The translations under genes were made by a program, and so were the position numbers. Positions 13,108 through 34,217 of a DNA stretch of 48,145 nucleotides are shown here, one piece after another (positions within the stretch are counted from its first letter, which is position 1; each line of letters opens with the position of its first letter). Under the pieces are notes generated by a model. It searched no databases, was not told the origin of the DNA, and saw nothing but the letters and a program-made list of their open reading frames with translations. The stretch is from positions 1 to 48,145 of the forward strand of contig SYLG01000021.1 in NCBI GenBank assembly GCA_005808665.1. The letters are read 5' to 3'. This DNA is from Planctomycetia bacterium (GTDB lineage Bacteria > Planctomycetota > Planctomycetia > Gemmatales > Gemmataceae).

Positions 13108-13112
13108 AAATT

Positions 13113-14419: not shown

Positions 14420-14470
14420 ACAAGCGGTCTTTCTGGCCAGGATGGCTTTTTCTCATTGAAAGGGATTTTC

Positions 14471-14875: not shown

Positions 14876-15003
14876 GGTTTTTCCCATCGTTATTTCCTTT
14901 CCCTGGGTTGGAAAAATGGAAAACGGTGCGGTGTGGTGGCAAGGGGAACGAGCCCTGGCATGGGTTTGATGCCAGGGGCTTTTGTGATCGCTACGATATT
15001 TGT

Positions 15004-17323: not shown

Positions 17324-17343
17324 GGCGCCAAGGGACCATCCAA

Positions 17344-17850: not shown

Positions 17851-17854
17851 TTTG

Positions 17855-18757
17855 TTATCGGGTTAAAGGTACCTGGTTGACCTTCGAAGGCCCAAAAAAT
17901 CCTGTTTGCTGGATTTGTCCTTGGGTATTGGTTGGGTTTCCTTGAGAAGGCCTCCCTATTCCGGTTTGCTGGATTTGTCCTTGGGAAGGGGTTGGGTTGC
18001 CCGCCTTGGGTAAAGCGGGTTGCCCTGTTGGAACCAATCCGACAGGTTGAATTTCTCCCATTGGTTTTAAGCTTGAATTTCCCTGGGGTTGTTTGGGAAA
18101 GGGAATGGCCACTACGGGCAGGCCAGAACGAATTTGTGGCGCCGAAACCCCGGTTTTTCCTCCCACTGTGGTAATGGGTTGAGACTTTTCGGTGTTGACC
18201 CCAAGGATTTTGGCCACCGCCGATTCAGGATGGGTCATAGTGATTGGCCCACTATCGGTATAAAGGGCAAATCCGTTGGTTGTTTGATATTTCACCTTGA
18301 GTTGAATGCGATGGTAGGATTCAAGGCAAGTACTCCAAGGCAGGTAAATCGTGTATCCAAAACCAATCGGGTCATTTTTTCCCAATCGATTCAAAGTCTT
18401 CGCATCGATTTGCCACTGTTCCAGGTGAACCGGTTCGGGACTTTGTGAACCGGTCACATCATAAAGGTCTACCACCAACGACCCATTTCCCTTGAGTGGC
18501 TTCCCAATTTCATTTCCAAAGAGATAAAGCCTTCCGCCAATACCTGGAGCACTCATGCCCCCCCTGGCTGGATCCGCACTAAACAGGACCTCCGGTTGCC
18601 AGGTTGTAACCACCTGGCAGGGGGTTTCATGTTTGGACAGAAACGAGGTATCCAGGGTGGGAAGCGTAACGCATCCTACCATTCCAAAGGCCATAACAAG
18701 GCCCAAGGCAGCACCAAGGTTGATCCGGACTTTTTGCCGACATTGGACCGTTTTCAT
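17855..18757 (-). CDS. Planctomycete-type lipoprotein downstream of the giant secretin
   Basis: The product is 300 residues. The signal peptide ends in the lipobox MVGC with the lipidated Cys at residue 29. A conserved domain follows, with PGIGGRLYLFGNEIGKPLKG, LVVDLYDV, DPIGFGYTIYLPW and GFALYTDSGPITM. I recall this pattern only from planctomycete hypothetical lipoproteins. The C-terminal third is Gln/Pro/Gly-rich and contains a repeat with a 20-residue period (GQIQQTG twice). ATG 18757 is supported by AAGGAG eight bases upstream. The gene follows the secretin stop by 66 bases on the same strand. A lipoprotein next to a secretin suggests a pilotin or outer-membrane assembly role, but no pilotin fold is recognised. 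Confidence 0.75.
   Translation of the reverse strand: MKTVQCRQKVRINLGAALGLVMAFGMVGCVTLPTLDTSFLSKHETPCQVVTTWQPEVLFSADPARGGMSAPGIGGRLYLFGNEIGKPLKGNGSLVVDLYDVTGSQSPEPVHLEQWQIDAKTLNRLGKNDPIGFGYTIYLPWSTCLESYHRIQLKVKYQTTNGFALYTDSGPITMTHPESAVAKILGVNTEKSQPITTVGGKTGVSAPQIRSGLPVVAIPFPKQPQGNSSLKPMGEIQPVGLVPTGQPALPKAGNPTPSQGQIQQTGIGRPSQGNPTNTQGQIQQTGFFGPSKVNQVPLTR
17904..17985. repeat. Tandem repeat, 22-nt identical core with 60-base period
   Basis: The 22 bases at 17904-17925 recur identically at 17964-17985, exactly 60 bases apart. They lie inside the lipoprotein gene and keep frame, giving the 20-residue protein repeat near its C-terminus. Copy-number variation between strains would be expected. Confidence 0.8.
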
Positions 18758-18823
18758 GGAGGTGACTCCTTCACCAATTAGGGCCACATCCATGGCCAAA
18801 CCGCAGAAACAAACCTATTGGGC

Positions 18824-21800
18824 CTATTCGCCTTGTCTACGCATATCGGAAACCTGGGGTGCCGGTTGCAACCTTGGCAAGACAACCCCAGGCCTTTGAT
18901 TTCCAGGGACTCCCAAGCTTGGACCATCCACAGTTATCGATCCAACGGTGGGGGTTTCGTTTTGGCGGCCACTGGTTGCCGTGACCGGTTGATTCCACAT
19001 GGAGAATTGGTTCCCTGTCGCCGGAACTAAAGGCCCGGAAGAATAATTCCCTCGGGAAATCTCCCCGGATGCTCCGGTCGGCTTGTTGGGTATGGAGTTG
19101 GGAAGGCTTCTGGGTTGGGGCAATTCCTCTCCACCCAGGCGATGCCTTGGGGGAATTTCTTCACCGGAAGGTCTTCGGCCCTCTTCCGGAGTCCCGGTAC
19201 CTGCCGGCGGAGTTACGGGAGGGGCACCATTGACCCCAGGGGGCCCAAAGAGGTTGGGGAATAATCGCTTCTTGGTGGGTTCTGCCGGAATCGTTCCATC
19301 CACATCCCCAGGAGGTGGAAGAATGGGTTGCATTCCCGAAGGCCCATGGGCCTTGATCACATCCCCAACCAACCAACTCATGCGTGAGGCTTCCATTGCC
19401 AAGACCCGGTCGGCCTCAAGGCGATTGCGCACCACATGGGGGGTTAGGATGACTAGCAATTCCTGGCGTTCCTTGAATTGTTCGCGATACCTGAAAGCGG
19501 TCCCAATCAAAGGTAGATCTCCCAACCATGGGATCTTGCGTTCTGCCTTTTCATCAACCTTGCGAATGAGCCCACCGATGGCAACCGTCTCCCCATCCTG
19601 GGCGATGACGGTGGTTTCGACGGTTTGGGTATCGACCTGAAACAGGTCGATAGCGGGGGAGCCGTTGGACCCGGGGAGTTGTTGGCCGCTCGGAGAAGCC
19701 TTGGAAACCTGGGGAGCAACGCGCATCACCACCTTGCCATCAGGAGATATTTTTGGGGTTACGACCAGCTCCACACCCACGGGAACATAACTGATGCTTT
19801 GCTGGGTAACGCCTACTGTGGCGTTACTGGCACTGATTAGTGGGAAATTGGATCCCACAAACACCCGAGCTTGCTGGTTGTCCATGGTGGTCACCTGGGG
19901 ACGACTGAGGATGTCGATTCGTCCCTGGGTTTTCAAAGCACGAATCAACAGGTTGAATGAATCCGAGGCGGCGGAAAACACCAATCCTCCAGACCCCAAT
20001 CGTTTGCTATTGCGACCCACATTGAGGGAGTTGACCCCCTGGAAGCCGACAATACCAGGTTCATAAGTACTATAAGGGTAAGGTGCGGCCCCGATAAAAT
20101 AGTTCCCTGGGTTGGCAATGGTCCCTGAGGTCTGGTTGACGGTTACACCCGTGGGCAAGGGAATCCCATTGGGTTGGCCTGTCAAACCAACCGTACCTAC
20201 TGACCCAATGGAAGGAAGTATTCCCCGTTGAAAAAGGACCGGGCTTTGGAGGCCGATTTCCACCCCAAACTCTTCGCCACCGGTTAACCGGACCTCGGCC
20301 ATCATCACCTGAATGACAACCTGGGGCTGTTCAGAATCCAATTCGTTGACAAGTTTGGTGATTTCGCCAAACCACCGTGGGGAGGCAGAAACAAGCAACT
20401 TGTTGGAAATTGGCTCGGGAACAATCACCACCTGACGATCCACCTGTTGGTAGTTACTTAGTTGTTGGCCCTGGTCCAAAACATCAAGGGATGTGGTCAA
20501 AAAGGTGTTAAGAGCGGTGGCAACATCCGCTGCGGTTGTGTTTCGCAACATGAAGATTTCGTTTCGCCTTTGCTGGATGTCAAATTCATCCAATCGGGCA
20601 ATAATTGCTTCAATCGCTTCCATATCGGATCGACTGCCTGCGACGATGATGCTGTTGGTCCGTTCATCAACCCCCATGCGAAGGTCAATAATGGGTGCGC
20701 CTGGTTGACTTGACCCTCCCAGGGAAATTTGCAAACCTCGACCAATTGCATTTGTCTGGGAATTGGCACCCTGATTACCGACTCCCAAGCCACCAAAGGC
20801 GGGGTTGGCCCCTTGCTGTTGCCCGGTCCGCCCAGCACCACCCGTGGTGGAACCAGAAGGATTAAACAGGTTCTGGATGGTTGTTGCTAGGGAGGTGGCA
20901 TCGGCCTTCTTTAAGGGAAAAATGTTGATTTCCGCCCGGGCTGCAGGGGGAACATCCAACTCCTTCAACAGCGAAATGATCAGTTCAACGGACTTTTCCG
21001 GAGCGGAGATAATCAAACGGTTGGTCCTGACATCCGCTGTAATATGAATATCCTCAAGGACCCCTGATTCGATGGCCTTACCGTCTTTGTCCCGGTTAAC
21101 AATTCTCAAGGTCTGGGCTTTGGTGCCCGTGCCGCGCACTGCGGTTGTGTTGGTGGTATTTTGTTGTCCCCCACCAAAGAAGGCTGCAAATCCACCCCCG
21201 CCTTGCTGTTGGGTTCCAGTACCTGGTACCGCAATCCCTTGCTGGATCGCCCCATTGATCATTGTGGCAAGCTCTTCCGCAATGGCATACTTAAGGGGAA
21301 ATACCCGTAATTCATTTACCGCTTTGGAGACATTGGAGTCCACTTTTTCGATAAGTGCCTTGATTTCCTCCAAGTCTGCCGCCGAGGCTTGGACAAAGAC
21401 CGTATTGGACCCATCATCTGCGGTCACCCGAACCTGGTTTTGAGCGGTAGCTTCGCCTGGGAACCGATTGGCGTAAAAATTGGTAATAAGGGTGGCAACC
21501 CTTGAGGCAGGGGCCCTTTGCAATTGAAAAGGAATGGCTCGGGACGCTTCGGAATTGGGTTTGTCGAGTTTCTTGAGATCAGCCACGATCTCTTCCATGC
21601 GTCCTTTGGGGGCTGCGACAAAGATCGCATTTTGACGGGGAACGGGAATGAGGATTACACTTCCCAATTGCTGTTGGCCTTGGGCTCCCTGCTGGGGTTG
21701 TTGCCCCCCAAAGATTGCTCCAAAGGGGAAACCACCCCCCTGGGGTTGGGCCTGAGGTTGACCCGGTTGGCCCCCCGGTTGGGCCTGAATGGCACGAGTA

Positions 21801-24800
21801 TTCCCGGTTGCACTAACCACCACAGCCCGGTAAAGCTGCGAGAATGTCGCCGCTATGCTGGTGGGGTCACCATAGAGCATGGGGACCAACAGTATCTGGA
21901 AATCCGAGGCCACGCCGTTTTTACGGATGAACTCAATGATTTTGATGACCGCCTCAATGTCGGCGGCATTGTTCCCGCTTAAAACCAGAACCCCCAACTG
22001 GCTCAAGGATTCCACGGTAACCGATTCTTTTGGACCGGCAACATTGTCCGCCCTGCTCGTGACAGGGGGTTGAAGAGCTACAGGAGCTTGGCCCGGAATG
22101 GTTTGTAACCAGGTAACATTCTGGATACCATTCTCGGCGATTACCCTTGCCGGGGTTGGATCCTGCCTTGGGTCGTAAAGCGGGGATTGCCCAAAACCTT
22201 CTGGTCCGTTGTTGTTTTGTGTCCTTGGGTCATCCATGACCGCTTGGACGAAAAAATCCGGATTCCCTGGATCAGTCAACCTGACTTGGGGACTGGGGGC
22301 TTCTTCCGCCCGTTGAGGAGGCCTGCCGCCCCCACCACCGCCACCACCCCTGCCACCGAATCCGCCCATGCCACCACCGCCGCCGCCCCGGCCACCGAAC
22401 CCACCCATGCCACCACCACCCATGCCACCGCCACCCATGCCACCGCCACGGCCGCCGAAACCACCACCACCCATACCGCCACCGCCCATGCCACCACCAC
22501 GGCCGCCGAAGCCACCACCCATACCGCCAAAGGGTGAACCACCGGCCCCACCCAAGGCTCCAGAAGCCGCAGGTCGGGTGGATGTCCGGCCCTGAATGGC
22601 ATCAATCGCCTGCTGAACAAGAGCGGGATCAATACCGTTTACCTGAACCACCCGGACCACCTTGGAATTGTTCGGTTTGGCAGAGTTTTCCATGTACTCG
22701 ACCAATTTGGAAATGTCCTCGTAAAGGGTTTGGGGGCAATAAAGCAGGAGGCTATTGCTTTTTTCGTCCACCCCAATGCTTAGGGAAACGCGGTTTCCTC
22801 CTTGTTGTCCACCACCCCCGCCGCCAAAAGGGAAACCCATCCCGGGAAAACCACCGGCCGAGCTGGATGCCCCGGATGCTTGGGTCAACCCCCTGAAAAC
22901 ATCCTGAATGGTTCGGGAGGCATCGAGAGCGTTAATGTTTTCGAGTGGACCAAGGACCCAGGTCTTCGGAACCGCAAGAGAATCACTCTCGCCTGAATCG
23001 AGGGCTTTTTCCAAAAGCTTTTTGATGGTAATAATGTCCAGTTTGCTTGCCCGGATCAAAAGCGTGTTACTGGTGCTGTCGGCAACGACCCGGATGCGAT
23101 TGGGAGTTGCATTGGTAGGGGTTGATCCGCCGCCACCAATACCGGCAAAGCGAAGTAATGGGCTGAGCCCACCCAGCATTCCTCCTGCTCCCCCCGCCCC
23201 TTGGGCCTGGGCTGGACCATTGAATGCTTCCTCAAGAACTTTGGCCACCTGAGCCGCACTTGCTGTTTTCAGGCGAACGATTTCGAAATCCCCTTCGTTG
23301 GAGGGGGCCGAGGTCAAAACCCGGACGAGTTCCTGGGCAAGGTTCAGGGTCTCCTCATCATCGCAAGAAAGGAGAACGCGATTTCCCAAGACAGAGATCT
23401 TCAAAGGGGCATCTTTGCGGCCGGGAAGGTCCCTTCCCACCAACCGGGGCTGAACCAGGGGTTGGGTGGGCAAACCCAATTGCGGTTGGGTTGGGACAGC
23501 GGAAGGTTGCTGGGGAACCTCTTGGACCTGGGCATTGACAAAAGCAAAATTCCCCGGGTTGGGAAGCGATACTTCGGGAATCCCGGGGGCATCGGTGTTC
23601 TTTTTCGGGGTCGTCATGGGAATGCGCTGGAAGGGGGGGACAGGATTCACCGGACTTGCGGGCCCACTTATGGTTGGGTTAATCAGCCGAACCGGGTTTG
23701 CCCGCATCTGGGGAAGCATTCGCTCCAAGGATTCGGCAAGGTCCGAAGCACTCCCTTTATCAATATTCAGGATCCTGAGGTTCCCCGATCCCCCAATGCC
23801 ATTCGCCCCATTAAGGGCTTTGATGATCTGTTCGACTTCGAGTACCTGGTCAGCAGGTCCACGAATAATGATCGCATTGCGATCAATGGAGGCCTCAAGG
23901 TAAGGCGCCCCCGACCTTGCATCACCAAGCATTCCTTTAAGCGTTTCCACCACCACGGTGGGGTTCAAAGCACCCACAGGCAATAGTGAAGTTCGGACTC
24001 CCTTTTCGGTGCCGGACCCAAGGATTTGTTTGGCAATTTCCATTTGATCATCAGGCGTTGCGTAGACAATCATGGTGTTCGGATTCGCCGCACTGATGCG
24101 AACGACAGGACTGGTTCTGTAAATTTCGGTAAGGGTCTTGGCCAAAGCATCCGCCGTCCCGGCAGGAACGGTATATTGTTTGATGAAAGGGTTTCCCGAG
24201 ATAAAAGGAAGCTGGCCCGGGGCACCCACATCAATCCTTTTCAGGACATCCCTGGCTTGAGCCACTTTGTCCGCCGGACCGGTAACCAACACCGTATTGG
24301 TGCGATCATCTGTGGTGATGTTATGTGCCCTGGACCTTCCGGTGGTGGTACCCAAAACCCGGCCTGACCTTGGGTCAACCATTTGTTGACCAGGAGGGGC
24401 CGCAGTCATGAGTTTTGGGTCTCCCAGCAAGTCCTTGAGGATTCGTTCTGCCTCGCGGGCCTTGATAAATTTGCATTCATGATTCAGACTTTCCGCCTGA
24501 ACCTGGTTTTCGTTTTGCTCAATATCGCGGACAGTTTTGCGGATGCGCTTGAGGTTGGCAACAGTGTCCTGAAGGATTAGTTGGTTGGCCCGGGTCATGG
24601 GAACCACTTCCCCAAATGGCCCCATCATTTTTTTGATTTCGGGGGCAACATCCTCCGCCACCAGACTGGTTAGGGGTAGGACAATGGAAACCATTTCTGT
24701 GTTCCCCCTGCCATCCAATTCCTCAAGGTTAATCCGCGGGAGAATCGAGGGATCGATTTTTTCGTCTGCGGGAACCAAAGTGAAAGATCGTTCCCGCCGA

Positions 24801-25327
24801 ATCAGGTAAAATTTCTGGGTTTCGCTGTTTGCAAGGAGGGCTTCGTTGATAATGTCAATCACTTCAGGAATGGTATAAAGCTTTCCCGGAGGACCCTGGA
24901 AAGTAAAGGTTCCAGAGGGTTTGTAAGTGGTGATAATGGGAAGGTCGGTTTGATTGGTCATCCATTCAAAAACCCCGGCCCAAGGCTTGCTATCAAAGGC
25001 AAAAGCCACCTTTTTACCCCCAAAAGGCAGCAGGGCGGCTGGCACCTGGGGGGAAGCCGGGGGCGTTGTTCCTGAAAGCGGAATGGGAGCCAGGCGGTTT
25101 TGGGGCACAACCGCAGGTGTTCCCGGAAGGGGCAGAGTGCCTGTTTGATTGGGAACCAATTCAGGAGGTGCAGCTACCGGTTGGGCAACCCCTGCAAAAG
25201 GGGGAAGGGTGATGGTTTGAGCCACCAAACTGGGATGACAATAGGCCAAAGCCCATGCCACCACCCATGCTTTTTTGCTTCCAAGCACCCTACGAATTGG
25301 ACGACCAAATGAATGAGGAAGGCCCAT
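18824..25327 (-). CDS. gspD: Giant type II secretion secretin (GspD-like), 2,167 residues
   Basis: This is the outer-membrane channel of the type II secretion locus. It has an N-terminal signal (ends near LVAQ, residue 37), a Pro-rich linker, and an N0-like domain (~105-185). About thirteen N1-like repeats then run along residues 248-1665, each with Asn-x-hydrophobic strand then helix, such as NTVLVTGPADKVAQARDVLK, NAIFVAAPKGRMEEI and NKLLVSASPRWFGEITKLV. The secretin core lies at ~1666-1970 with VPVGVELVVTPKI, ETVAIGGLI and WLGDLPLIGTAFRY, and a Pro-rich tail closes the protein. Ordinary GspD has about 650-700 residues and three N1-like domains. Gly-rich inserts occur, the longest at 923-1002. 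It lies 250 bases after gspM, so it may have its own promoter. No strong Shine-Dalgarno is seen at 25327. Confidence 0.92.
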   Translation of the reverse strand: MGLPHSFGRPIRRVLGSKKAWVVAWALAYCHPSLVAQTITLPPFAGVAQPVAAPPELVPNQTGTLPLPGTPAVVPQNRLAPIPLSGTTPPASPQVPAALLPFGGKKVAFAFDSKPWAGVFEWMTNQTDLPIITTYKPSGTFTFQGPPGKLYTIPEVIDIINEALLANSETQKFYLIRRERSFTLVPADEKIDPSILPRINLEELDGRGNTEMVSIVLPLTSLVAEDVAPEIKKMMGPFGEVVPMTRANQLILQDTVANLKRIRKTVRDIEQNENQVQAESLNHECKFIKAREAERILKDLLGDPKLMTAAPPGQQMVDPRSGRVLGTTTGRSRAHNITTDDRTNTVLVTGPADKVAQARDVLKRIDVGAPGQLPFISGNPFIKQYTVPAGTADALAKTLTEIYRTSPVVRISAANPNTMIVYATPDDQMEIAKQILGSGTEKGVRTSLLPVGALNPTVVVETLKGMLGDARSGAPYLEASIDRNAIIIRGPADQVLEVEQIIKALNGANGIGGSGNLRILNIDKGSASDLAESLERMLPQMRANPVRLINPTISGPASPVNPVPPFQRIPMTTPKKNTDAPGIPEVSLPNPGNFAFVNAQVQEVPQQPSAVPTQPQLGLPTQPLVQPRLVGRDLPGRKDAPLKISVLGNRVLLSCDDEETLNLAQELVRVLTSAPSNEGDFEIVRLKTASAAQVAKVLEEAFNGPAQAQGAGGAGGMLGGLSPLLRFAGIGGGGSTPTNATPNRIRVVADSTSNTLLIRASKLDIITIKKLLEKALDSGESDSLAVPKTWVLGPLENINALDASRTIQDVFRGLTQASGASSSAGGFPGMGFPFGGGGGGQQGGNRVSLSIGVDEKSNSLLLYCPQTLYEDISKLVEYMENSAKPNNSKVVRVVQVNGIDPALVQQAIDAIQGRTSTRPAASGALGGAGGSPFGGMGGGFGGRGGGMGGGGMGGGGFGGRGGGMGGGGMGGGGMGGFGGRGGGGGGMGGFGGRGGGGGGGGRPPQRAEEAPSPQVRLTDPGNPDFFVQAVMDDPRTQNNNGPEGFGQSPLYDPRQDPTPARVIAENGIQNVTWLQTIPGQAPVALQPPVTSRADNVAGPKESVTVESLSQLGVLVLSGNNAADIEAVIKIIEFIRKNGVASDFQILLVPMLYGDPTSIAATFSQLYRAVVVSATGNTRAIQAQPGGQPGQPQAQPQGGGFPFGAIFGGQQPQQGAQGQQQLGSVILIPVPRQNAIFVAAPKGRMEEIVADLKKLDKPNSEASRAIPFQLQRAPASRVATLITNFYANRFPGEATAQNQVRVTADDGSNTVFVQASAADLEEIKALIEKVDSNVSKAVNELRVFPLKYAIAEELATMINGAIQQGIAVPGTGTQQQGGGGFAAFFGGGQQNTTNTTAVRGTGTKAQTLRIVNRDKDGKAIESGVLEDIHITADVRTNRLIISAPEKSVELIISLLKELDVPPAARAEINIFPLKKADATSLATTIQNLFNPSGSTTGGAGRTGQQQGANPAFGGLGVGNQGANSQTNAIGRGLQISLGGSSQPGAPIIDLRMGVDERTNSIIVAGSRSDMEAIEAIIARLDEFDIQQRRNEIFMLRNTTAADVATALNTFLTTSLDVLDQGQQLSNYQQVDRQVVIVPEPISNKLLVSASPRWFGEITKLVNELDSEQPQVVIQVMMAEVRLTGGEEFGVEIGLQSPVLFQRGILPSIGSVGTVGLTGQPNGIPLPTGVTVNQTSGTIANPGNYFIGAAPYPYSTYEPGIVGFQGVNSLNVGRNSKRLGSGGLVFSAASDSFNLLIRALKTQGRIDILSRPQVTTMDNQQARVFVGSNFPLISASNATVGVTQQSISYVPVGVELVVTPKISPDGKVVMRVAPQVSKASPSGQQLPGSNGSPAIDLFQVDTQTVETTVIAQDGETVAIGGLIRKVDEKAERKIPWLGDLPLIGTAFRYREQFKERQELLVILTPHVVRNRLEADRVLAMEASRMSWLVGDVIKAHGPSGMQPILPPPGDVDGTIPAEPTKKRLFPNLFGPPGVNGAPPVTPPAGTGTPEEGRRPSGEEIPPRHRLGGEELPQPRSLPNSIPNKPTGASGEISRGNYSSGPLVPATGNQFSMWNQPVTATSGRQNETPTVGSITVDGPSLGVPGNQRPGVVLPRLQPAPQVSDMRRQGE
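22321..22560. repeat. Glycine-codon minisatellite inside the secretin gene
   Basis: These ~240 bases are made of imperfect short units encoding GGMGGGG and GFGGRGG blocks (residues ~923-1002). Reading frames on the other strand here are artefacts of the repeat. The segment is likely to vary in length by slippage while staying in frame. Confidence 0.85.
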
Positions 25328-25577: not shown

Positions 25578-26756
25578 TTATTTGGGTGCCACCTTCGGTT
25601 TGGGAGGTACCAATTTTTCTAAACCCAGCTGCTTTAGCTCTTCTTTTTCCATGGGGGTGTTCACCACCGGGAAAAAAGTCTCGCCACAGCGCATTAGGTA
25701 TAGTTCCCCATCTGCTTGAAATACAATGTAGGCCGGATCAATATGCAAAAGCTTTGCTTTTAGCATCGAGTTGTCATACTTATCTTTAATCGTGAAATCT
25801 GCCCAAGCGGCAGATGTACGCAATTTGGTTTCCCGGCCTCCCCGGTTTTGATCATAAACATAGGCTTCCCACCGACGGCCATCGCCCGAAATCGTGGTTA
25901 ACTTGACACCGGATAGGACCTCCTCCCGATCTTCTTCCGGGCCACGAACCACCGAAGGGGGAGGTGGGGGCGGGGAAGGTGGAGCCGGGGGCGGGTCGTC
26001 CGGGGGGAAAAACGGGTTGGCGGAAGCCAAAACAGAGTAATCGCGAGGATTGCTTGCCAAGACCATTTGATCGGATAAAGAACTTTTCGCCTCCTTTGCC
26101 AATTTATCCGGGACCAAAGGATTGTTTTTCAAGGCCCCAGGGACCATCAACCCTTCCACGGTAAGGAGGATTTTGAGGTCGGATTTGGTTTGGGCCTTTT
26201 TGGCGTTTTCAATTTTCATGGAGGGGACATGGTGTAACAGGGGTACCCGGTGCAACATCTCCAAAAATACGCCTAGATCTTCCAACCTGCCCTGGGTGCT
26301 AATCTCAAAGGAGATTGGTTTGTAAGCGTCCTTTTTGCCCTCCTTGAAATCCAATTTGGGTATGGATTGGGTGGTAAAGGACCTTCCGACGGAAACAACC
26401 GTATTATTGGGTTTGAATCCACTATTGGTCAAAAGGTCCCGTAAAAGCGTGGAATAGTCCATCCTCACTGAAGCCAAATGGGCATTTTGGGCATCCGCCC
26501 CTGGCTTTTCCGCCACCGGAAGACTCAGTTTTCGCCAACCCTGCAAGCGGGGATGGAGTTTCAGGATGGAGGCAACCTTGTTGCTCTCTTTTTCCAAATC
26601 CGATTCGAGGCGTCCCACCTCGGTTTCCAGGGACTCCACCTGGGTATGAAGGGAAGAAATGGGGGAATAAAAACCGTAATAAAATCCCCCGCCTCCGACC
26701 CCGAAAACCATGAGGCATCCCAGGATAAGTGCCAGTGTTTTTTCTCTGGGTGTCAT
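25578..26756 (-). CDS. GspM/PilO-like protein with a C-terminal GspC/PilP-like domain
   Basis: The product is 392 residues. It has one N-terminal membrane helix (~8-28), a coiled coil (~33-62), and a PilO/GspM-like ferredoxin-fold region to ~205, including ISFEISTQGRLEDLGVFLEML, the usual PilO pattern. A proline-rich linker (~248-270) is preceded by ANPFFPP. The final domain (~280-365), with LSGVKLTTISGDGRRWEAYV, AKLLHIDPAYIVFQADGELY and LMRCGE, resembles the small beta homology region of GspC or PilP, which contacts the secretin. It would thus be an inner-membrane platform protein that also takes the GspC role. The start overlaps the gspL stop (ATGA). The fusion reading is inference from pattern; the GspM/PilO half is firmer. 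Confidence 0.7.
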   Translation of the reverse strand: MTPREKTLALILGCLMVFGVGGGGFYYGFYSPISSLHTQVESLETEVGRLESDLEKESNKVASILKLHPRLQGWRKLSLPVAEKPGADAQNAHLASVRMDYSTLLRDLLTNSGFKPNNTVVSVGRSFTTQSIPKLDFKEGKKDAYKPISFEISTQGRLEDLGVFLEMLHRVPLLHHVPSMKIENAKKAQTKSDLKILLTVEGLMVPGALKNNPLVPDKLAKEAKSSLSDQMVLASNPRDYSVLASANPFFPPDDPPPAPPSPPPPPPSVVRGPEEDREEVLSGVKLTTISGDGRRWEAYVYDQNRGGRETKLRTSAAWADFTIKDKYDNSMLKAKLLHIDPAYIVFQADGELYLMRCGETFFPVVNTPMEKEELKQLGLEKLVPPKPKVAPK

Positions 26757-28435
26757 GATTTGGCCCCCTTTGGACCTTTGGAGGAATCATTGGTTGGTGC
26801 CTCCTTGGCAGGACCCGATTGGGACGAGTTCTCCTTGCTTTGAATTTCTTTGCCCGAGCCTTCTTTTTCCTTACTTCCTTTTTCCTTACTTTCTTTTTCA
26901 GTCTTGCCTTTGGCCTCGGATGATTGCCGTGGGTCATCTTCCTCTGAAGAATCCTTCGTTTCTTCTGCTTTAGCCTTTTTTTCGGGGGGGAGCTTGGCTG
27001 GAGGCTCCAGTTTGCGGAGGTAATCCCCCGGGGCCCGCCTCCTTACATCAATTTCCAAAGTAAAATCGGAACCTTTTTGCTCCTCTTTTTCTATTTTGTA
27101 GACCCCGTCCTTGCGCAATTCATCCACAAGGGATTTGAGGGCTTCGCGTTTTTCGGCCCCACCGGGAAGAGTTCCCTTGATGGTAAGATGGCTGCGAAAA
27201 TCACTCTCTTTTTCCGGGTTACGGCGAGGGGACGCAGACATTTCGGTCACCAAAAGATCTTTAGTATTGGGTATTCGATGGGAAATGTCATACACCTCAT
27301 CAAGCCAAACGACATCGTCCCATGCTCCCAAGGCCTGTAACCGTTTGGTGTCAATTTTGTTGACCTCAAGGTCCCGTTTCAATTCGTCCCGGCGAACTTT
27401 CAGCCCTGCGACTTCATCCTCAACCCGGTTTTTTACGCCCCAAAAATACCAACCCAAAATGACTAGTGCCAACATTCCCACCAGGGAATATAAAGCGAGC
27501 CGTTGCTGGCCCTCAGGAGAAGGGGGAGGCGGTTGTTTCGGATTCAGAAAATCGGGTTCAATTTTAAGCCCTTTTTCCTCCAGGCGTGCCATCCCTGCCA
27601 AAACGCCAAGGGAAGCCGTGAAATCTTCACAATTTGTCGGAATGGATGGGGCATCCAACACACCATCAAAAGGCATTATTCTTTGGAGAGGCAGGTTGGT
27701 GGCAAGGGCCAACTCGGCATCCTGATTCCACTTGGGTGGGGATATCAAAAACAGGGATTTGGGCACCAATGTGGGGTTTTGGGATCCAAAAAGGGTTAGG
27801 CTCCGGCGAATTTCCGGAATCAGGCTACTTCCAGGATTCAGGGACCGGCTGAAAAGCGGCTTGCCATCCCGAAGAACCACCAATTCCGCCCAACCCCCGC
27901 CCAAAGCAACAAGGCCTACCGTATCCCCCTTGGGTCCCAAATCTGCCATCAATCCCGACAAACCTGCCAACCTTGGACTTAAGCCCGCCAATTTTAGTTG
28001 GGACGAGGTGGCAATGGTTTTCCATGTTTTAAAAAGCTCATTGCGAAGGAGAAGGGCTAAAATCCGCCGCTCTTCCATCCCGGGCAAATCGACCGAGACA
28101 TAGTCCAATTTGACCTCATCGGGCGACTCATTCAGGTCTCGCATTACCTGGTAGCCAACCAAACCGGGTTCTTCCGCGGGTCCCACCTTGGGAAGAGTCA
28201 ACTGCCTTGCAATAAGGCGATCCCTGGGCAACGAAACCACCAACCGGGCACCCGGCACTGCAAAATCCTTGAGAAAGGCTTTGAGTTGATCGGCCTGCTC
28301 TTCCGCCATAACAGGATTGGGACTGCCTTCGGTGGCAATGGTAAGGACTTTGCAACCGCCAAGCCCCTTGCGGGCGGTTAAGCCCAAAATGCTTAACCGG
28401 TCATTATCCCAATCAATATAAACCTTGCGGATCAT
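26753..28435 (-). CDS. gspL: GspL-like protein: PilM-type actin fold fused to PilN-type domain
   Basis: The product is 560 residues. Residues 1-275 form a PilM/GspL actin-like domain (RKVYIDWDNDRLSILGL, LVVSLPRDRLIARQLTLPKV, VGLVALGGGWAELVVLRDG). A Pro-rich linker, one membrane helix (~314-334), a coiled coil (~335-362) and a PilN-like periplasmic domain (~365-475) follow. The last ~80 residues are a Lys/Glu/Ser-rich charged tail, which is not usual. GspL recruits the GspE ATPase to the inner-membrane platform and pairs with GspM, here translationally coupled downstream by a four-base overlap. It is 96 bases after gspK. Confidence 0.85.
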   Translation of the reverse strand: MIRKVYIDWDNDRLSILGLTARKGLGGCKVLTIATEGSPNPVMAEEQADQLKAFLKDFAVPGARLVVSLPRDRLIARQLTLPKVGPAEEPGLVGYQVMRDLNESPDEVKLDYVSVDLPGMEERRILALLLRNELFKTWKTIATSSQLKLAGLSPRLAGLSGLMADLGPKGDTVGLVALGGGWAELVVLRDGKPLFSRSLNPGSSLIPEIRRSLTLFGSQNPTLVPKSLFLISPPKWNQDAELALATNLPLQRIMPFDGVLDAPSIPTNCEDFTASLGVLAGMARLEEKGLKIEPDFLNPKQPPPPSPEGQQRLALYSLVGMLALVILGWYFWGVKNRVEDEVAGLKVRRDELKRDLEVNKIDTKRLQALGAWDDVVWLDEVYDISHRIPNTKDLLVTEMSASPRRNPEKESDFRSHLTIKGTLPGGAEKREALKSLVDELRKDGVYKIEKEEQKGSDFTLEIDVRRRAPGDYLRKLEPPAKLPPEKKAKAEETKDSSEEDDPRQSSEAKGKTEKESKEKGSKEKEGSGKEIQSKENSSQSGPAKEAPTNDSSKGPKGAKS

Positions 28436-28531: not shown

Positions 28532-30034
28532 CTATAAGCCCGCCAATTTTGCCGGGTCAGCTCCAGCATCCCGGGCTTGACGGGCCTTTTCCGAAAGGTC
28601 CCGGAAGTATACCACACGAGGCCTTGGACCGCTGGTATCAACCACGACTTCCATTAGGCTCATTGGGCCGCTTCCATCGAGTTTACCCATTATGCGGACT
28701 CGGTAGGCTGTGGAAAACCCGGTAACATACCTTTCAATGGAGCGAATTTTGGAGGGGTCCATATTGGCTTCCGTGAACAACCAGGTGGGGCTTTGGTAGA
28801 GCGGATCCCCGGAGCTCATCGCCGAGGGCCGATATCCAACAATGTTTTGGAGGTCCGATTCCATCAAAGAGGGCAATCCGGCAAGCAAGGCCGGTTGGGC
28901 GGTTAGCAGGTTGAGTTTGCCAGGCAAATCCAAATCCTGACTGGTGGAAAACCCCTGGTAAAGTAGGGGTAGATATTGCCTGGCGGTTATGGGGTCCTTG
29001 AGTGGGCTGGGAAAGGTCACGGTTGCCTGGGTCTTTCCCTCACCGACTTTGACATCCACATTTTTGGATACAAGATCCATGATGTTGGAGATCTTGTTCA
29101 GTTTGGTCATTCCCGTAGAGGCTTCCTGGATTTTTTTGTTAAGCTCGGTGGTGACTTTGGTGTAGTCCGCATTAGCCATGCCACCTACGCCGGAGCTTGA
29201 GCCTTTTCCCGCAGCAAGGTTGGCAAGGACAGTGACCGTGCTAACGGGTTGTTTGGATGCCCCATAAAGCCTGTAGGCCATTATAAAATTGGTCACCCGC
29301 TCACCCACCATGGTGTTCAAACCTTGTTGCATGGTGGCAAGGTCCGGATTGTTGAAATTGATCTTTGGGGTCCAGGCGTTGGTGGAAGAATTGGATGGCT
29401 GAACCAGGTTTTGCTCCCGGGAATAGACGGTAAAAAAGCTGGCCAAACCCGGGCTTGTCGAGTCACCAAAAAGGATTTCCTGGGAAACCCCTTTCACCAA
29501 AAGCAATTCATCGATGCTGTCCAGGGGACCATTTTTACAGTAATAGGAGGGTTGAAGGAGGTTGTAATATTCGTTTTCCGCCCCGCCTTCTCCAGGGGTA
29601 TCGTTGTTGTCCACCCAGTCGACAATGGAGTCGATGATATTGTCCGCCAGGGTTGGAATCTGAACCTGCATCCGTTTGAGGGTGGATTTCAGGATTTCGC
29701 CGTTTGGATCCACCTGAAGGAGGGCATTGATGTTCCACTTGGCGGATTCATCATCCACCGTGAGAACCTCAAAAGTACCCATCTGCTTCCCGCCGCCAAG
29801 GGAAAGGGATTGGACGGTTCCGGCTTGGGGAATATTGCCTTGAGCCAATTCGGAAAGGACGAAAGCCACACCGGAGTCTGCCAGGGCACGAGCTTGAACA
29901 AGACGAACCGCAGAATCCGTGGCACGGTATTCCGCCACCATGTTGTCATTGAACCGGTAGGCAACCAGGGCCAAAAAAGAGACCACCAAAAGCACCGCAA
30001 ACAACACAACCCCTCTGCGGATTTCTCCGGGCAA
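28532..30034 (-). CDS. gspK: GspK-like minor pseudopilin
   Basis: The product is about 500 residues. The N-terminus has the prepilin cleavage site RRG|VVLFAVLLVVSFLALVAY, lacking the Glu at +5 as is typical of GspK, the tip pseudopilin. The large globular part contains the GspK block DSIVDWVDNND, GAENEYYN, and PLDSIDELLLVKGV. The start is uncertain. A TTG at 30034 has no ribosome site, while AAGGGG (30076-30081) sits eight bases before an in-frame ATT at 30067 that would give MKLNLKPNRLPLPGEIRRG. GspK with GspI and GspJ caps the pseudopilus. It is longer than enterobacterial GspK (about 320). Confidence 0.88.
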   Translation of the reverse strand: MPGEIRRGVVLFAVLLVVSFLALVAYRFNDNMVAEYRATDSAVRLVQARALADSGVAFVLSELAQGNIPQAGTVQSLSLGGGKQMGTFEVLTVDDESAKWNINALLQVDPNGEILKSTLKRMQVQIPTLADNIIDSIVDWVDNNDTPGEGGAENEYYNLLQPSYYCKNGPLDSIDELLLVKGVSQEILFGDSTSPGLASFFTVYSREQNLVQPSNSSTNAWTPKINFNNPDLATMQQGLNTMVGERVTNFIMAYRLYGASKQPVSTVTVLANLAAGKGSSSGVGGMANADYTKVTTELNKKIQEASTGMTKLNKISNIMDLVSKNVDVKVGEGKTQATVTFPSPLKDPITARQYLPLLYQGFSTSQDLDLPGKLNLLTAQPALLAGLPSLMESDLQNIVGYRPSAMSSGDPLYQSPTWLFTEANMDPSKIRSIERYVTGFSTAYRVRIMGKLDGSGPMSLMEVVVDTSGPRPRVVYFRDLSEKARQARDAGADPAKLAGL

Positions 30035-30079: not shown

Positions 30080-31390
30080 TTATTTTGCCTTGCTGCCACC
30101 GCTGGCCCCTGTCGAGGTCCCTGGGGGTTTGGTTGCGCCTGAACCTTGGCTACCGCCGGACGGTCTGGCACCACCTGTAGATCCGGTGGAGCCCGTTTTG
30201 GCACCACCCGAAGATCCGGAGGAGCCCGTTTTGGCACCAGAAGAGGAAGAGCCCCCGGAGGATGACCCAGTTTTCGCACCGGAGGAGGAAGATCCCCCGG
30301 GGGAGGCTCCACTGGACCCGGCATTGGAACTTTCGGCAGAAGCCGCACCCGTACCCGGGTCATTGGCACCAGGACTTACCACTTTGCCAAGGCCAATGGT
30401 GTTAGCGGTGGGAAGGGCAACAACCTGTGAGTATTTGCGAGTTGTTTTCCCATCCCCGAAATCCATTTCCACCTCGATTTTCACGGCCCGAGGGGGGCCT
30501 TGGGGTGTCGAATGGTCATAACTCAGGGCCCTACTATCCCAAAAATTGGTCCAATACCCCGGGGTGCCATCGTTATAACTGAACTGGATGGAACGAACTT
30601 CAGGAGCAATGATGTACTGGTCCACATCGGTGGGAAGGATTCCTGTACTAACCACTTCGGGGGAGGAGACCTGACTGGACTCCCAACGGGCAAGTCCCAG
30701 CCCTTCCCCCGCAACCCAATAGGTGATTCGCTTGATATCACAGGTTGGCCCCGAATTTACCCCGGTCTGGCCCCCATTGCCTGCCATGGGTTTGACATAG
30801 GGTAAGGTTCCGGCTTGAAAGGCGGTTACTTGACTTTCATAACCCACAATTCCTGGAATGAAAAGGACCCTTGTTAGGGCTGGAGTATCCGTCGAAGAGC
30901 TTGAGGAGGAGCCACTCCCTGACGAGGAGTTGCCACCAGATGAGGTCCCGGAAGAATTGGAGGAGCTTCCGGATCCAGAGGAGGCTCCCGAACTTCCGGA
31001 GGATCCGCTGGAACCTGATGAACCCGTTGACCCGGTGGAACCTGTTGACCCGGAGGATCCTGTGGAACCTGTTGAGGATGAATCTGTGGCCGAGGAATCG
31101 GTGGAACCGCCCTCCTCCACCGGATACGACAACTCTCCACTTCGGAATGGTCCGGGATTATTGACTGTGATGGATCCCACCATGTCCCTTGCAATGCGGT
31201 CCATCAACGCCCGGGCCAAGGTAGATTGGGCGATAGCATCGCGGCTGTTTTGAGTCGTTAAAACTTGAAACTCCACCACTACATAAAGCCCACCCAAGAG
31301 AAAAACACTAATGGCACTGGCCAATAGGGCTTCAAGAAGGGTAAATCCCTGCCTTTTGAAATCCTGTTTGGGACAACCAGTGCTTCTCAT
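30080..31390 (-). CDS. gspJ: GspJ-like minor pseudopilin with Ser/Gly-rich insert and tail
   Basis: The product is 436 residues from the ATG at 31390, which has AAGGA nine bases upstream. An in-frame ATG at 31429 overlaps the gspI stop (ATGA) and would add 13 residues. The prepilin peptide is KRQG|FTLLEALLASAISVFLLGGL with Glu at +5. Family features include STLARALMDRIARDMVGSI and IKRITYWVAGEGLGLARWE. Two low-complexity stretches are present: a Ser/Gly/Thr tract (~96-167) inside the globular domain and a Ser/Gly/Lys tail (~348-436) with repeated SSGAKTGSS. The normal GspJ is about 200 residues, so the extra length is almost all low complexity. Confidence 0.85.
   Translation of the reverse strand: MRSTGCPKQDFKRQGFTLLEALLASAISVFLLGGLYVVVEFQVLTTQNSRDAIAQSTLARALMDRIARDMVGSITVNNPGPFRSGELSYPVEEGGSTDSSATDSSSTGSTGSSGSTGSTGSTGSSGSSGSSGSSGASSGSGSSSNSSGTSSGGNSSSGSGSSSSSSTDTPALTRVLFIPGIVGYESQVTAFQAGTLPYVKPMAGNGGQTGVNSGPTCDIKRITYWVAGEGLGLARWESSQVSSPEVVSTGILPTDVDQYIIAPEVRSIQFSYNDGTPGYWTNFWDSRALSYDHSTPQGPPRAVKIEVEMDFGDGKTTRKYSQVVALPTANTIGLGKVVSPGANDPGTGAASAESSNAGSSGASPGGSSSSGAKTGSSSGGSSSSGAKTGSSGSSGGAKTGSTGSTGGARPSGGSQGSGATKPPGTSTGASGGSKAK
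30890..31105. repeat. Ser/Gly codon repeat inside gspJ
   Basis: About 216 bases encode near-pure Ser, Gly and Thr (GSTGSSGSTGSTGS type). The segment interrupts the GspJ fold between RSGELSYPVEEGG and TPALTRVLFIPG, where a loop must be. A second Ser/Gly-coding tract (about 30083-30349) encodes the tail. Confidence 0.75.
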
Positions 31391-31397
31391 GAAAACC

Positions 31398-31423
31398 AAT
31401 CCTTTGAACGAATCCTTTGAACG
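31398..31423. repeat. Two tandem 13-base units before the gspJ start
   Basis: AATCCTTTGAACG occurs twice in direct succession on the plus strand. On the coding strand each unit carries AAAGGAT, a Shine-Dalgarno-like element. The repeat lies between the two candidate gspJ starts, so copy number changes both the spacing and the frame of the upstream ATG. Confidence 0.75.
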
Positions 31424-31425
31424 AA

Positions 31426-31938
31426 TCATTTGCCCGTAGTACCAGTTGAGCTACTCCCCGTGGAACCTGCGGAACCGGTCGTAGCGGCCCCATTTGTACC
31501 CGTGGTCCCGGTGCCTTGGTCGGTTTCCTCGGGAATAGCATCCATCGTGCTACCCAGGGCCTGGGGATCGGCCAAGTATTGAACCAACTCCACCTTTGAC
31601 CGGGCAAATCCATCCCTTTGGGCTGTAATCGTCACCTGAAAAAGAACGGGTCCAAGCGGCTGGACATCGGCGGTCCAAATGTAACGATCATCCGTTTCCC
31701 AATTGCCGTTGGCATTGGAAAGGGCGGTAAAGCCCGCCTTCATCTCGGCTACCTTGGATTCCGCAACCAAAAGGGCAATGCTGCGCTGGCCAGCCTCCTC
31801 GGCCCGTTCCCTGGCCATGTCCACCAGGTTGCTAATCGCCATGATCGACATGAAAAAAATAGCCAAGGCGATCAACACTTCCAACAGGGTCATTCCCTGG
31901 CGGCGGCCAGACCTTGGGCGTCGTGGAAAAGGCTTCAT
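31426..31938 (-). CDS. gspI: GspI-like minor pseudopilin
   Basis: The product is 170 residues with the prepilin site RRQG|MTLLEVLIALAIFFMSIMAISNL (cleavage after residue 15, Glu at +5). The segment GQRSIALLVAESKVAEM is typical of GspI. The C-terminal 30 residues are a Thr/Gly/Ser tail (GTGTTGTNGAATTGSAGS). AAAGGTG precedes the ATG. It starts four bases after gspH and overlaps the next gene. Role: nucleates the pseudopilus tip with GspJ and GspK. Confidence 0.85.
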   Translation of the reverse strand: MKPFPRRPRSGRRQGMTLLEVLIALAIFFMSIMAISNLVDMARERAEEAGQRSIALLVAESKVAEMKAGFTALSNANGNWETDDRYIWTADVQPLGPVLFQVTITAQRDGFARSKVELVQYLADPQALGSTMDAIPEETDQGTGTTGTNGAATTGSAGSTGSSSTGTTGK

Positions 31939-31942
31939 GTTT

Positions 31943-32485
31943 TCACCTTTCCACCGAAGAGGTTCCTGTCAAAGCCCGAAGGTTGATCAGAATCGACCGG
32001 ACACCCAACCCTTCACACGAAAGGGTCGCATCCACATCCGCCCTTCCATCCGGAAAAAAAACAGCCACCTGCACCCAGGAGTTTGGATTGACCGAACCGA
32101 CCTCCTGGGCCGTTTGCCGATCTCCAAAATCCATGACCTCGCCCTCGGAAACGCCATGATCAAGGGCTACTACCACCCCATCAGGCAGCGAATCTTCATG
32201 TTCTTCGGAATCGTCCCCGGAGCCCCCGGTCCAAAACTCATCGCGATCGGGTGCCGCACGGAGGTTGCCCGCACCATCGACAATGCACAGCCTATAGGGT
32301 TCCCCCTCCTCTATGGCGAGGTGGCGAGCCATGGCAATGACTTCCCGGATGGTATCCGATGCCGATTTAAGGGTTTGCCCTTTGAACCATCCCGTCATGG
32401 TGGGATAGGCCATTGCCGAAAGCATGACGATTACCGCCAAGACCAACACCATCTCCAGAATGGTGAATCCGCCTCGGCGCTTCAT
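31943..32485 (-). CDS. gspH: GspH-like minor pseudopilin
   Basis: The product is 180 residues with a short leader and prepilin site RRGG|FTILEMVLVLAVIVMLSAMAYP. The GspH-type segment TLKSASDTIREVIAMARHLAIEEGEPYRLCI follows, and a central acidic stretch (SGDDSEEHEDSLPDG). GGAGG lies eight bases before the ATG. The position between the major pseudopilin and gspI is the standard order. Confidence 0.85.
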   Translation of the reverse strand: MKRRGGFTILEMVLVLAVIVMLSAMAYPTMTGWFKGQTLKSASDTIREVIAMARHLAIEEGEPYRLCIVDGAGNLRAAPDRDEFWTGGSGDDSEEHEDSLPDGVVVALDHGVSEGEVMDFGDRQTAQEVGSVNPNSWVQVAVFFPDGRADVDATLSCEGLGVRSILINLRALTGTSSVER

Positions 32486-32514: not shown

Positions 32515-32928
32515 TTATTTGGGTGCATTACCCAAGGGTTTGCCCGCCTTGGTGGTGGTCCAAACATAACAGGTTCGATTGTTTTCATCCTCAACAACCT
32601 GAAACTGAAAGGGTTGACCCCAGGGATCAATCAGAGTTTCGGGTTTTTCCAAGTAGGAGGGAACCAATTCCTGAAGAGACCCAGGCCACTCCCCTGTGTT
32701 GGTTTTGTAGGATTTTGCGGCAGTTGAAATGGTGGTGGAGTTGATCGCGGCGGTTTTCTCCTTGGACCGTTCCAGTTCATTCATGAAGGCTACCGATCCA
32801 AGACCCGCCAGCACGACAATGATCGCCATGACGACCAGGATTTCCATCAGGGTAAAGCCACGGCGTGTTAGGTGGCCTGCAACTCTCAAGGGGCGATTTG
32901 TCAATTGGTTTTCAAGGTTGATACGCAT
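32515..32928 (-). CDS. gspG: GspG-like major pseudopilin
   Basis: The product is 137 residues. The leader ends TRRG|FTLMEILVVMAIIVVLAGLGSVAF with Glu at +5. The GspG hallmarks are present: a helical KTAAINSTTISTAAKSYKTNTGEWP region and the DPWGQPFQF motif near the C-terminus. It should polymerise into the periplasmic pseudopilus. The 24-residue leader is longer than usual. GGAG sits nine bases before the ATG. It follows gspF by 83 bases. Confidence 0.92.
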   Translation of the reverse strand: MRINLENQLTNRPLRVAGHLTRRGFTLMEILVVMAIIVVLAGLGSVAFMNELERSKEKTAAINSTTISTAAKSYKTNTGEWPGSLQELVPSYLEKPETLIDPWGQPFQFQVVEDENNRTCYVWTTTKAGKPLGNAPK

Positions 32929-33011: not shown

Positions 33012-34217
33012 TCAATCGATGGCACTCGACATTCGGAAGACGGGTAACAAAAGGCCCGCAACAACCATTAATGTGAGTGCCGCCATCACCAACAACATCA
33101 TGGGTTCCAAAAGCCGGACAAAAAGATCCAACTCCCGGGTAGTACGCTTTTCCAAGCTGTTAGCAATGTCAAGCAATACCTTTTCCAAATTGTTGCTTTC
33201 CTCCCCCACCGAGACCATTTCCACCAGGTCCTTGGGGAAATACTTGCTGTTGGCCAAAGGGGTGGCCAAACTATCCCCAGCCTTGATGTTTTCGGCACTT
33301 TTTTCAATAGCTTCGGCAATCATTTTATTGCCCGTGGAATCTTTTGCGATTCTAAGCGATTGAAGGATAGGAATACCATTCTTTAAAAGTGTACCCAATA
33401 TCCGGGCAAATCGGGCGATCGCCAAGCTTAAAAAGATCCGGCCTGCTCCCGGAAGAGCAATCTTGAACGCATCGACGGACTTTCGCCCGGTTTCGGATTC
33501 GGCCCAGCGTTTGAAACAATACCAAAGGCCAACCCCAATCAGGACCAGAAAAATGCCATAGGTCTGAAGGGTGTGGCTTAAGCCAATGAGAGCCTCGGTG
33601 ATCAAAGGCAGCTGGCCTTTTTCCCGGAGCCTGGTGAATATCTGTTCAAACTGGGGTACGAAAAAAATGACCAATATGTTGAGGATGATAAAACCAATAA
33701 CGGCCAGGAAAATCGGGTAGGCCATGGCTCCGGTGACCTTGGCCCGAAGCTCTTCCTGCTGTTCGGTAAAATCGGCGATTCGCCGCAAGACATCCTCCAG
33801 GAACCCACCCTCTTGCCCCGCCAAAACCATACTGACGGCAAGCTCGCCGAAAACTTTGGGATGCATTCCAAAGGCTTGGGCCAATCCGGTTCCTTCGGCA
33901 ACCTTGCTCCGGACTTCCTTGATGACAGCTGAAAAGGCCGGGTTGGACGATTGCCGTTCCAAAATCTCCAACGATCTCAAAAGGGGCACACCGGACTGAA
34001 GCAGGTCCGCAAGCTGGGAAAAAAAACTCGTCAAGACCCGGGTAGAGACCCGAATGGCGGATCCCGTGCGAACTGTTCCCTGAACCACCTCTACCTTGAT
34101 GGGCATCAAACCGCGTGAATCCAACACCGACACGGCTTCCCGTTCGGTATTGGCGGACAATACGCCCTGACTCTTTTGACCTGTTGCCCCCAAGGCGATA
34201 TAGCTGAAATCCGGCAT
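33012..34217 (-). CDS. gspF: Type II secretion inner-membrane platform protein GspF
   Basis: The product is 401 residues, the family length. It starts MPDFSYIALGATGQKSQGVL and has two cytoplasmic GspF domains, the first with FSQLADLLQSGVPLLRSLEIL and the second with FARILGTLLKNGIPILQSLRIA. Three membrane segments are visible, including IFLAVIGFIILNILVIFFVP and the C-terminal MLLVMAALTLMVVAGLLLP. It links the GspE ATPase to pseudopilus assembly. It lies 32 bases after gspE. Confidence 0.95.
   Translation of the reverse strand: MPDFSYIALGATGQKSQGVLSANTEREAVSVLDSRGLMPIKVEVVQGTVRTGSAIRVSTRVLTSFFSQLADLLQSGVPLLRSLEILERQSSNPAFSAVIKEVRSKVAEGTGLAQAFGMHPKVFGELAVSMVLAGQEGGFLEDVLRRIADFTEQQEELRAKVTGAMAYPIFLAVIGFIILNILVIFFVPQFEQIFTRLREKGQLPLITEALIGLSHTLQTYGIFLVLIGVGLWYCFKRWAESETGRKSVDAFKIALPGAGRIFLSLAIARFARILGTLLKNGIPILQSLRIAKDSTGNKMIAEAIEKSAENIKAGDSLATPLANSKYFPKDLVEMVSVGEESNNLEKVLLDIANSLEKRTTRELDLFVRLLEPMMLLVMAALTLMVVAGLLLPVFRMSSAID

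What the first reader, a model, noticed from the sequence alone, without database searches (positions are those of the whole stretch)
18824..25327. Secretin with about thirteen N1-like domains
Reading the 2,167-residue protein shows the same strand-helix unit (Asn-x-hydrophobic strand, then an E/K-rich helix ending in Leu-Asp) thirteen times between residues 248 and 1665. Standard GspD has three. The secretin core at the C-terminus is intact. If each unit forms a ring, the periplasmic vestibule would be several times longer, which could suit a deep or irregular planctomycete periplasm. It could also be a scaffold for binding substrates.
Basis: partly seen in the sequence, partly recalled or inferred. 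Interest (0 to 1): 0.85.

Follow-up and report, generated by a model that had tools for sequence, protein, structure and literature searches.

The report
Secretion channel with thirteen ring domains
A planctomycete's outer-membrane protein-secretion channel carries thirteen copies of a ring-forming domain where standard channels of its kind have three, and relatives in the same phylum carry up to about forty-six in the same gene cluster, so the machine's reach across the cell envelope may be set by simple domain duplication.

Summary
The 2,167-aa ORF (18824-25327, minus strand) is a GspD-type secretin (TIGR02517, 442 bits, cut-off 351). All 13 units between residues 209 and 1666 match the ring domain Secretin_N: 12 as cut, D8 only with its Gly-rich insert removed; eight pass Pfam's cut-off. 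Low-confidence AlphaFold models show beta-alpha-[insert]-beta-beta-alpha in the best-predicted units, and D10-D12 superpose on solved secretin N domains at about 1-2 A. The 13 units are conserved one-to-one in 15 further genomes of the family and are under purifying selection. The gene ends a gspE-to-M operon. The finding is larger than reported: in the same kind of operon, planctomycete secretins carry 3, 4, 6-8, 13, about 26, 43 and 46 N1 domains, in proteins up to about 5,000 aa. In one giant, nearby units are 69-80% identical, so arrays grow by tandem duplication. That every unit forms a ring, giving a channel of perhaps 50-65 nm, is inferred. The best precedent is Thermus PilQ (six N rings, ~35 nm, ~70 nm periplasm). 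I found no published description.

The parts
18824..25327 (-). gspD-type secretin gene, 2,167 aa
   Evidence: TIGR02517 442 bits vs cut-off 351; Pfam Secretin and Secretin_N
25016..25327 (-). signal-like N-terminus and Pro-rich linker, residues 1-104
   Evidence: read from sequence; weakly constrained, pN/pS 0.37
24704..25015 (-). N0 domain, residues about 105-208
   Evidence: phmmer match of residues 157-273 to XcpQ N0-N1 structures; Pfam N0 model not reached for this slice but weakly hit in L036; pN/pS 0.09
24494..24703 (-). N1 unit D1
   Evidence: PF03958 40.1 bits
24194..24493 (-). N1 unit D2
   Evidence: PF03958 46.9 bits
23999..24193 (-). N1 unit D3
   Evidence: PF03958 18.6 bits, below cut-off; beta-alpha-beta-beta-alpha in the low-confidence model; conserved in 15 orthologs
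23786..23998 (-). N1 unit D4
   Evidence: PF03958 30.4 bits; pLDDT about 70, beta-alpha-beta-beta-alpha; profile hits GspD N1
23297..23785 (-). N1 unit D5 with long Pro-rich insert
   Evidence: PF03958 18.1 bits, below cut-off
22979..23296 (-). N1 unit D6 with Gly-rich insert
   Evidence: PF03958 41.2 bits
22667..22978 (-). N1 unit D7 with Gly/Phe-rich insert
   Evidence: PF03958 24.1 bits, below cut-off
21908..22666 (-). N1 unit D8 with about 150-residue Gly-rich insert
   Evidence: PF03958 17.1 bits only with insert removed; second half found by own HMM; DNA repeats in the insert
21545..21907 (-). N1 unit D9 with Gly/Gln/Phe-rich insert
   Evidence: PF03958 25.2 bits, below cut-off; pLDDT 70-83 outside the insert
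21320..21544 (-). N1 unit D10
   Evidence: PF03958 45.8 bits; profile hits GspD N2; structure match
20936..21319 (-). N1 unit D11 with Gly/Gln/Phe-rich insert
   Evidence: PF03958 62.8 bits; structure match 2.1 A to an InvG N domain
20567..20935 (-). N1 unit D12 with Gly-rich insert
   Evidence: PF03958 45.7 bits; structure match 1.2-1.4 A to InvG and GspD N domains
20330..20566 (-). N1 unit D13, next to the core
   Evidence: PF03958 33.0 bits
19403..20329 (-). secretin core, residues 1667-1975
   Evidence: PF00263 at 1797-1967
18827..19402 (-). Pro-rich C-terminal tail
   Evidence: read from sequence; weakly constrained, pN/pS 0.37
17855..18799 (-). conserved gene directly downstream of gspD, lipobox-like motif in the window copy, possible pilotin or accessory lipoprotein
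   Evidence: synteny; lipobox pattern in about half of the orthologs only
25578..26756 (-). gspM-like (PilO-like) gene
   Evidence: synteny; weak PilO hit, T2SSM weakly in L036 ortholog
26753..28435 (-). gspL-like (PilM/PilN-like) gene
   Evidence: L036 ortholog hits PilM_2 at 1.1e-16; synteny
28532..30034 (-). gspK
   Evidence: T2SSK_1st 62 bits, cut-off 26
30080..31429 (-). gspJ-like minor pseudopilin
   Evidence: N_methyl; position in operon
31426..31938 (-). gspI
   Evidence: TIGR01707 43.0 bits, just under cut-off 44.35
31943..32485 (-). gspH-like
   Evidence: XpsH and GspH models below cut-off, N_methyl
32515..32928 (-). gspG-like major pseudopilin
   Evidence: T2SSG 25.7 bits, cut-off 21
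33012..34217 (-). gspF
   Evidence: T2SSF 1.8e-59
34250..35950 (-). gspE
   Evidence: T2SSE 4.7e-136

Best explanation
The gene encodes the outer-membrane channel (GspD) of a planctomycete type II secretion system. Its periplasmic part was lengthened by duplication of N1 ring-building domains, from the usual 3 to 13. In the assembled oligomer the chains most likely stack N0 and thirteen N1 domains into about fourteen coaxial rings: a long hollow vestibule between the inner-membrane platform (GspF/L/M) and the outer-membrane gate, through which a pseudopilus can push substrates across an unusually wide planctomycete periplasm. Shown: N1 identity of the units, intact core, operon context, fixation of 13 units in the family, purifying selection, and a 3-to-46 series in the same kind of operon. 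Inferred: the oligomer, ring stacking by every unit, the length (roughly 50-65 nm, scaled from Thermus PilQ), and adaptation to periplasm width.
For: All 13 units match Secretin_N; GspD model over cut-off; D10-D12 superpose on solved N domains; one-to-one conservation in 15 genomes with nearly constant length of D3, D4, D10 and D13, variation confined to inserts; pN/pS 0.05-0.25 for most units; E-F-G-H-I-J-K-L-M-D order conserved; series of 3 to about 46 units. Known biology: N1-type units build rings and ring number depends on the machine (PMC10550240); Thermus PilQ with six N rings, ~35 nm long, ~70 nm periplasm; planctomycete periplasm can be greatly enlarged.
Against: No multimer or tomography. 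AlphaFold models are poor (mean pLDDT 41.5 and 44.7), so relative orientation of the units is unknown. Five units score under the Pfam cut-off. GspC, the usual N0 partner, is not found. Forty-six stacked rings would exceed 140 nm, which is hard to picture, so ring stacking of every unit may fail at least in the giants.
Confidence: 0.6

Rival explanations
1. Only the units nearest the core form rings; the rest hang as a flexible beaded skirt or tether that reaches the inner-membrane platform, binds peptidoglycan or gathers substrates.
For: Only the last units correspond clearly between classes (W.10-W.12, i.e. D11-D13); the outer units are more diverged and some score low; very long inserts; in solved secretins the outer N domains are often poorly ordered (PMC10550240).
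Against: Short conserved spacing between units and strong constraint on D1, D3, D4, D9 and D10 fit defined packing better than loose beads.
Confidence: 0.22
2. The operon builds a type IV pilus-like fibre rather than secreting proteins, and the secretin is its exit channel.
For: MshEN-type ATPase, PilM-like L, PilO-like M and no GspC resemble pilus machines. Planctomycete crateriform structures carry pili-like fibres and contact the inner membrane (PMC5394234).
Against: The secretin passes the GspD model but not the PilQ model (442 vs 236 bits, PilQ cut-off 284). GspK is present. No retraction ATPase was seen in the operon; several other PilB/PilT-like ATPases lie elsewhere in the genome.
Confidence: 0.15
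3. The extra units are neutral: tandem duplication adds them and they persist without a function of their own.
For: Unit number is labile across the phylum, and fresh duplicates exist in L036.
Against: Thirteen units fixed and individually conserved across 16 genomes at 25-60% identity, with purifying selection on each; 46 units kept in register in four species of another family.
Confidence: 0.05

Closest known systems
Type II secretion system secretin GspD (PulD, XcpQ/XcpD, EpsD)
   Same: Secretin core, N0, N1-type units, place in a gsp operon; passes TIGR02517; solved GspDs are the best structure matches
   Different: 13 N1-type units instead of 3; 2,167 aa instead of about 550-700; Gly/Phe-rich inserts in many units; no GspC found
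Thermus thermophilus PilQ
   Same: Extra N rings (N0-N5) forming a long channel in a wide periplasm
   Different: Type IV pilus secretin of 757 aa with six N rings; less than half the number here
Deinococcus radiodurans DR_0774 (PDB 8co1)
   Same: Multi-N-domain secretin; its N domains match the D4 profile and the model
   Different: 740 aa, far fewer N domains

Membership tests
T2SS secretin GspD | GspD model above its curated cut-off | tested here: met
   TIGR02517 442.3 bits, cut-off 351.35
T2SS secretin GspD | C-terminal secretin core | tested here: met
   PF00263 153.5 bits over 169/169 positions
T2SS secretin GspD | N0 followed by N1-type ring-building domains | tested here: met
   PF03958 in all 13 units; N0 by phmmer to XcpQ
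T2SS secretin GspD | three N1-type domains (N1-N3) | tested here: not met
   thirteen; this is the variation, not a reason to exclude the family since core and models agree
T2SS secretin GspD | encoded with gspE, F, pseudopilins G-K, L and M | tested here: met
   H, I, J, L and M rest partly on position
T2SS secretin GspD | GspC partner | tested here: not met
   PF11356 not found in the genome; a diverged partner is possible
T2SS secretin GspD | oligomeric channel that secretes folded proteins | not testable with these tools
   needs experiment
Type IV pilus secretin PilQ | PilQ model above its curated cut-off | tested here: not met
   TIGR02515 235.8 bits, cut-off 284.35
Planctomycete crateriform structure | SDS-resistant pore linking outer and inner membranes | not testable with these tools
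   only a literature lead

The most novel reading that the evidence does not exclude
The N1 array is a duplicable molecular ruler: rings are added until the secretin spans the envelope. Long GspD secretins are the unidentified protein of the planctomycete crateriform structures, which link outer to inner membrane like press studs, carry fibres and survive boiling in SDS, as secretin cores do. The Gly/Phe-rich loops carried by many of the rings may fill the lumen as a selective gel.
Probability: 0.2. Interest if true: 0.93.

Novelty: new variant of a known kind. Interest (0 to 1): 0.82.

Why it matters
Structural work on secretins describes few N rings (T2SS N0-N3; the six of Thermus PilQ were called unusual). 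Here one kind of operon shows a natural series of 3, 4, 6-8, 13, about 26, 43 and 46 N1 units. That makes a question directly testable: does the length of a secretion channel scale with its ring count, and does it match periplasm width? It also offers a concrete candidate for the crateriform structures, reported on all planctomycetes and of unnamed composition in the papers read here.

Tried and rejected
AlphaFold on two slices (six rows and two rows, window plus L011): mean pLDDT 41.5 and 44.7, so domain order and ring geometry cannot be read; only single-unit topology is used. Foldseek: all 17 matches with E up to 0.001 are secretins, but rmsd of the multi-domain matches is 10-42 A; VIA-align supports single domains only, and unrelated small alpha-beta folds (KEOPS Pcc1, GlmM) also score Z 6-7. 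The D3 profile did not find secretins significantly in the PDB. Idea that the C-terminus of the GspM-like protein is a GspC/PilP homology-region domain: profile search gave no support. Recent DNA duplication of units in the window gene: none seen; only the D8 glycine run is a DNA repeat, and units are at most 37% identical. Expansion from 3 to 43 units inside one family by descent: G082 (43) and G122 (3) share a family label but the core tree does not join them, so not claimed. The giant-secretin lineages could not be named (one genome-contig scan only). Nine literature searches found no description of such secretins; only open-licence papers are held, and phyla outside Planctomycetota were not surveyed.
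Full report
Identity. The ORF at 18824-25327 (minus strand) encodes 2,167 residues. Pfam finds Secretin (E=5e-45, residues 1797-1967) and Secretin_N (E=5e-102, 11 stretches significant on their own). NCBIfam calls it GspD above the curated cut-off (442 vs 351 bits), while the PilQ, YscC and MshL models stay below theirs. Solved GspD structures are the top phmmer matches. The secretin family averages 555 +/- 151 aa in one survey (PMC4827864).

Counting. I cut the protein at the start of each first strand and scanned each slice. D1-D7 and D9-D13 all match Secretin_N; D8, split by a long Gly-rich insert, matches only after the insert is taken out. Eight units exceed the Pfam cut-off; D3, D5, D7, D8 and D9 do not, so these rest on position, motif, orthology and sub-threshold scores. 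An HMM of the second half of the unit finds 12 (all but D5). It finds none in 200 shuffled copies of the protein, and its only hits among 345 other long ORFs are further secretin reading frames. Profiles of D4 and D10 built from orthologs hit solved GspD at residues 104-166 (N1) and 172-238 (N2) of 5zdh. The count of thirteen stands.

Structure. Only the window and one locus could be used for AlphaFold, so confidence is low (mean pLDDT 41.5 and 44.7). The best-predicted units (D4, D9, D10) reach about 70-83 and show beta-alpha-beta-beta-alpha; the inserts fall between alpha1 and beta2. Single units D10, D11 and D12 superpose on N domains of GspD, InvG and PilQ at 1.2-2.1 A over 58-71 residues. 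The arrangement of the units relative to each other is not determined.

Constraint. Orthologs from 15 further genomes of the same family were aligned over the whole protein. All keep the thirteen units in register; the lengths of D3, D4, D10 and D13 are almost constant and variation lies in the inserts. Two genomes of a sister family in the order lack D2-D3. Between the window and its same-genus relative, synonymous sites are near saturation, yet pN/pS is 0.05-0.25 for most units, against 0.13 for the core and 0.37 for the linker and tail; D5 and D8, with long inserts, are at 0.37 and 0.28. The units are at most 37% identical to each other, so the expansion is old here.

Operon. Upstream lie gspE, F, G, H, I, J-like and K, then genes that I read as gspL-like (its L036 ortholog hits PilM_2) and gspM-like (weak PilO and T2SSM hits); downstream is a conserved gene with a lipobox-like motif in the window copy. 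The order E-F-G-H-I-J-K-L-M-D-downstream gene is kept across the order. GspC is not found in the genome. A second secretin of the genome lies on another contig and has a different, shorter architecture.

The series. All 148 planctomycete genomes sampled over the phylum have a secretin. In fetched loci the number of N1 units in the T2SS-type secretin is 3 (L047, L048), 4 (L041, L042), 5-6 (L045, L066, L067), 6-8 (L027, L031-L033, L043, L044, L068), 11-13 (order of the window), 25-28 (L025, 3,240 aa), 41-43 (L036, 4,213 aa) and 45-47 (L037-L040, 4,605-5,073 aa). Pfam alone counts 28, 43 and 47 stretches in L025, L036 and L038. The giants lie in the same kind of operon: homologs of E to M precede L036; homologs of F, G, H, I, K, L and M precede the L037/L038 genes, with no E seen in the stretch read. 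L037-L040 come from four genomes and keep 46 units in register, so they are not assembly errors. In L036, units 4/6 and 5/7 are 69% and 80% identical and 8/10 and 9/11 50-56%, showing growth by tandem duplication of two-unit blocks; in L037, 7/11 and 8/12 are about 40%. The units next to the core correspond between classes, the outer ones mostly do not, which suggests that arrays grew separately on the side away from the outer membrane.

Mechanism. N1-type units build rings in secretins of known structure, and the number of rings depends on the machine (PMC10550240). Thermus PilQ, with six N rings, is about 35 nm long in a periplasm of about 70 nm; its authors link ring number to the wide periplasm (PMC5745081, PMC4463427). 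The planctomycete periplasm can be greatly enlarged (PMC5394234). The simplest reading is a GspD whose vestibule was lengthened to about fourteen rings, roughly 50-65 nm by scaling; that number is an extrapolation. Ring formation by every unit, length, and fit to periplasm width are inferred.

Loops. In the window's order the inserts are rich in Gly (20-40%) and poor in charge (7-13%), and Phe makes up 15-42% of their hydrophobic residues against 9-14% in the whole protein; FG/GF pairs exceed shuffles in about half of the proteins. The giants lack this character. If the loops face the lumen they could act as a gel-like filter; nothing tests this.

A wider lead. Crateriform structures are large pores on planctomycete surfaces; they connect outer and inner membranes like press studs, carry 12-nm fibres, and survive boiling in 10% SDS (PMC5394234, PMC3954628, PMC6554331, PMC5287468). 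Secretin cores resist SDS and heat (PMC5745081). The passages read do not name the protein. Long GspD is a candidate; nothing here tests it.

Novelty. The protein is a GspD, so not a new family; the unit count and the series up to 46 lie far outside the secretins described in the papers I found, within an open-licence library only. I rate it a new variant of a known kind, of high interest.

Noticed in passing
L036 (G082), L037-L040 (G070, G001, G025, G117): Secretins of 4,213-5,073 aa with about 43 and 46 N1 units in T2SS operons; L036 holds fresh two-unit tandem duplicates. The lineages could not be named with the tools left.
   Followed up: partly
window 20567-23296 (inserts of D6-D9, D11, D12): Gly/Gln/Phe-rich, low-charge, FG-like loops between alpha1 and beta2 of many units, a trait of the window's order and absent in the giants.
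   Followed up: partly
L035 (G159), 7724-18330: The long secretin of this family member is split over several overlapping reading frames: decayed gene or sequencing errors.
   Followed up: no
window 17855-18799: A gene of no known family lies directly behind gspD in nearly all loci, with a lipobox-like motif in about half; candidate pilotin.
   Followed up: partly
L002 (G000 contig C11): The genome's only other secretin, 691 aa, differs in architecture and gives a weaker Secretin match; long orthologous frames occur in most relatives.
   Followed up: no
window 2-1907: First 2 kb is A+T-rich (39% GC against about 52%) with two ORFs of no Pfam family: possibly acquired DNA.
   Followed up: no
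L032, 1-2937: A further ORF with four N1 units lies in the same locus as the T2SS operon of this class relative.
   Followed up: no
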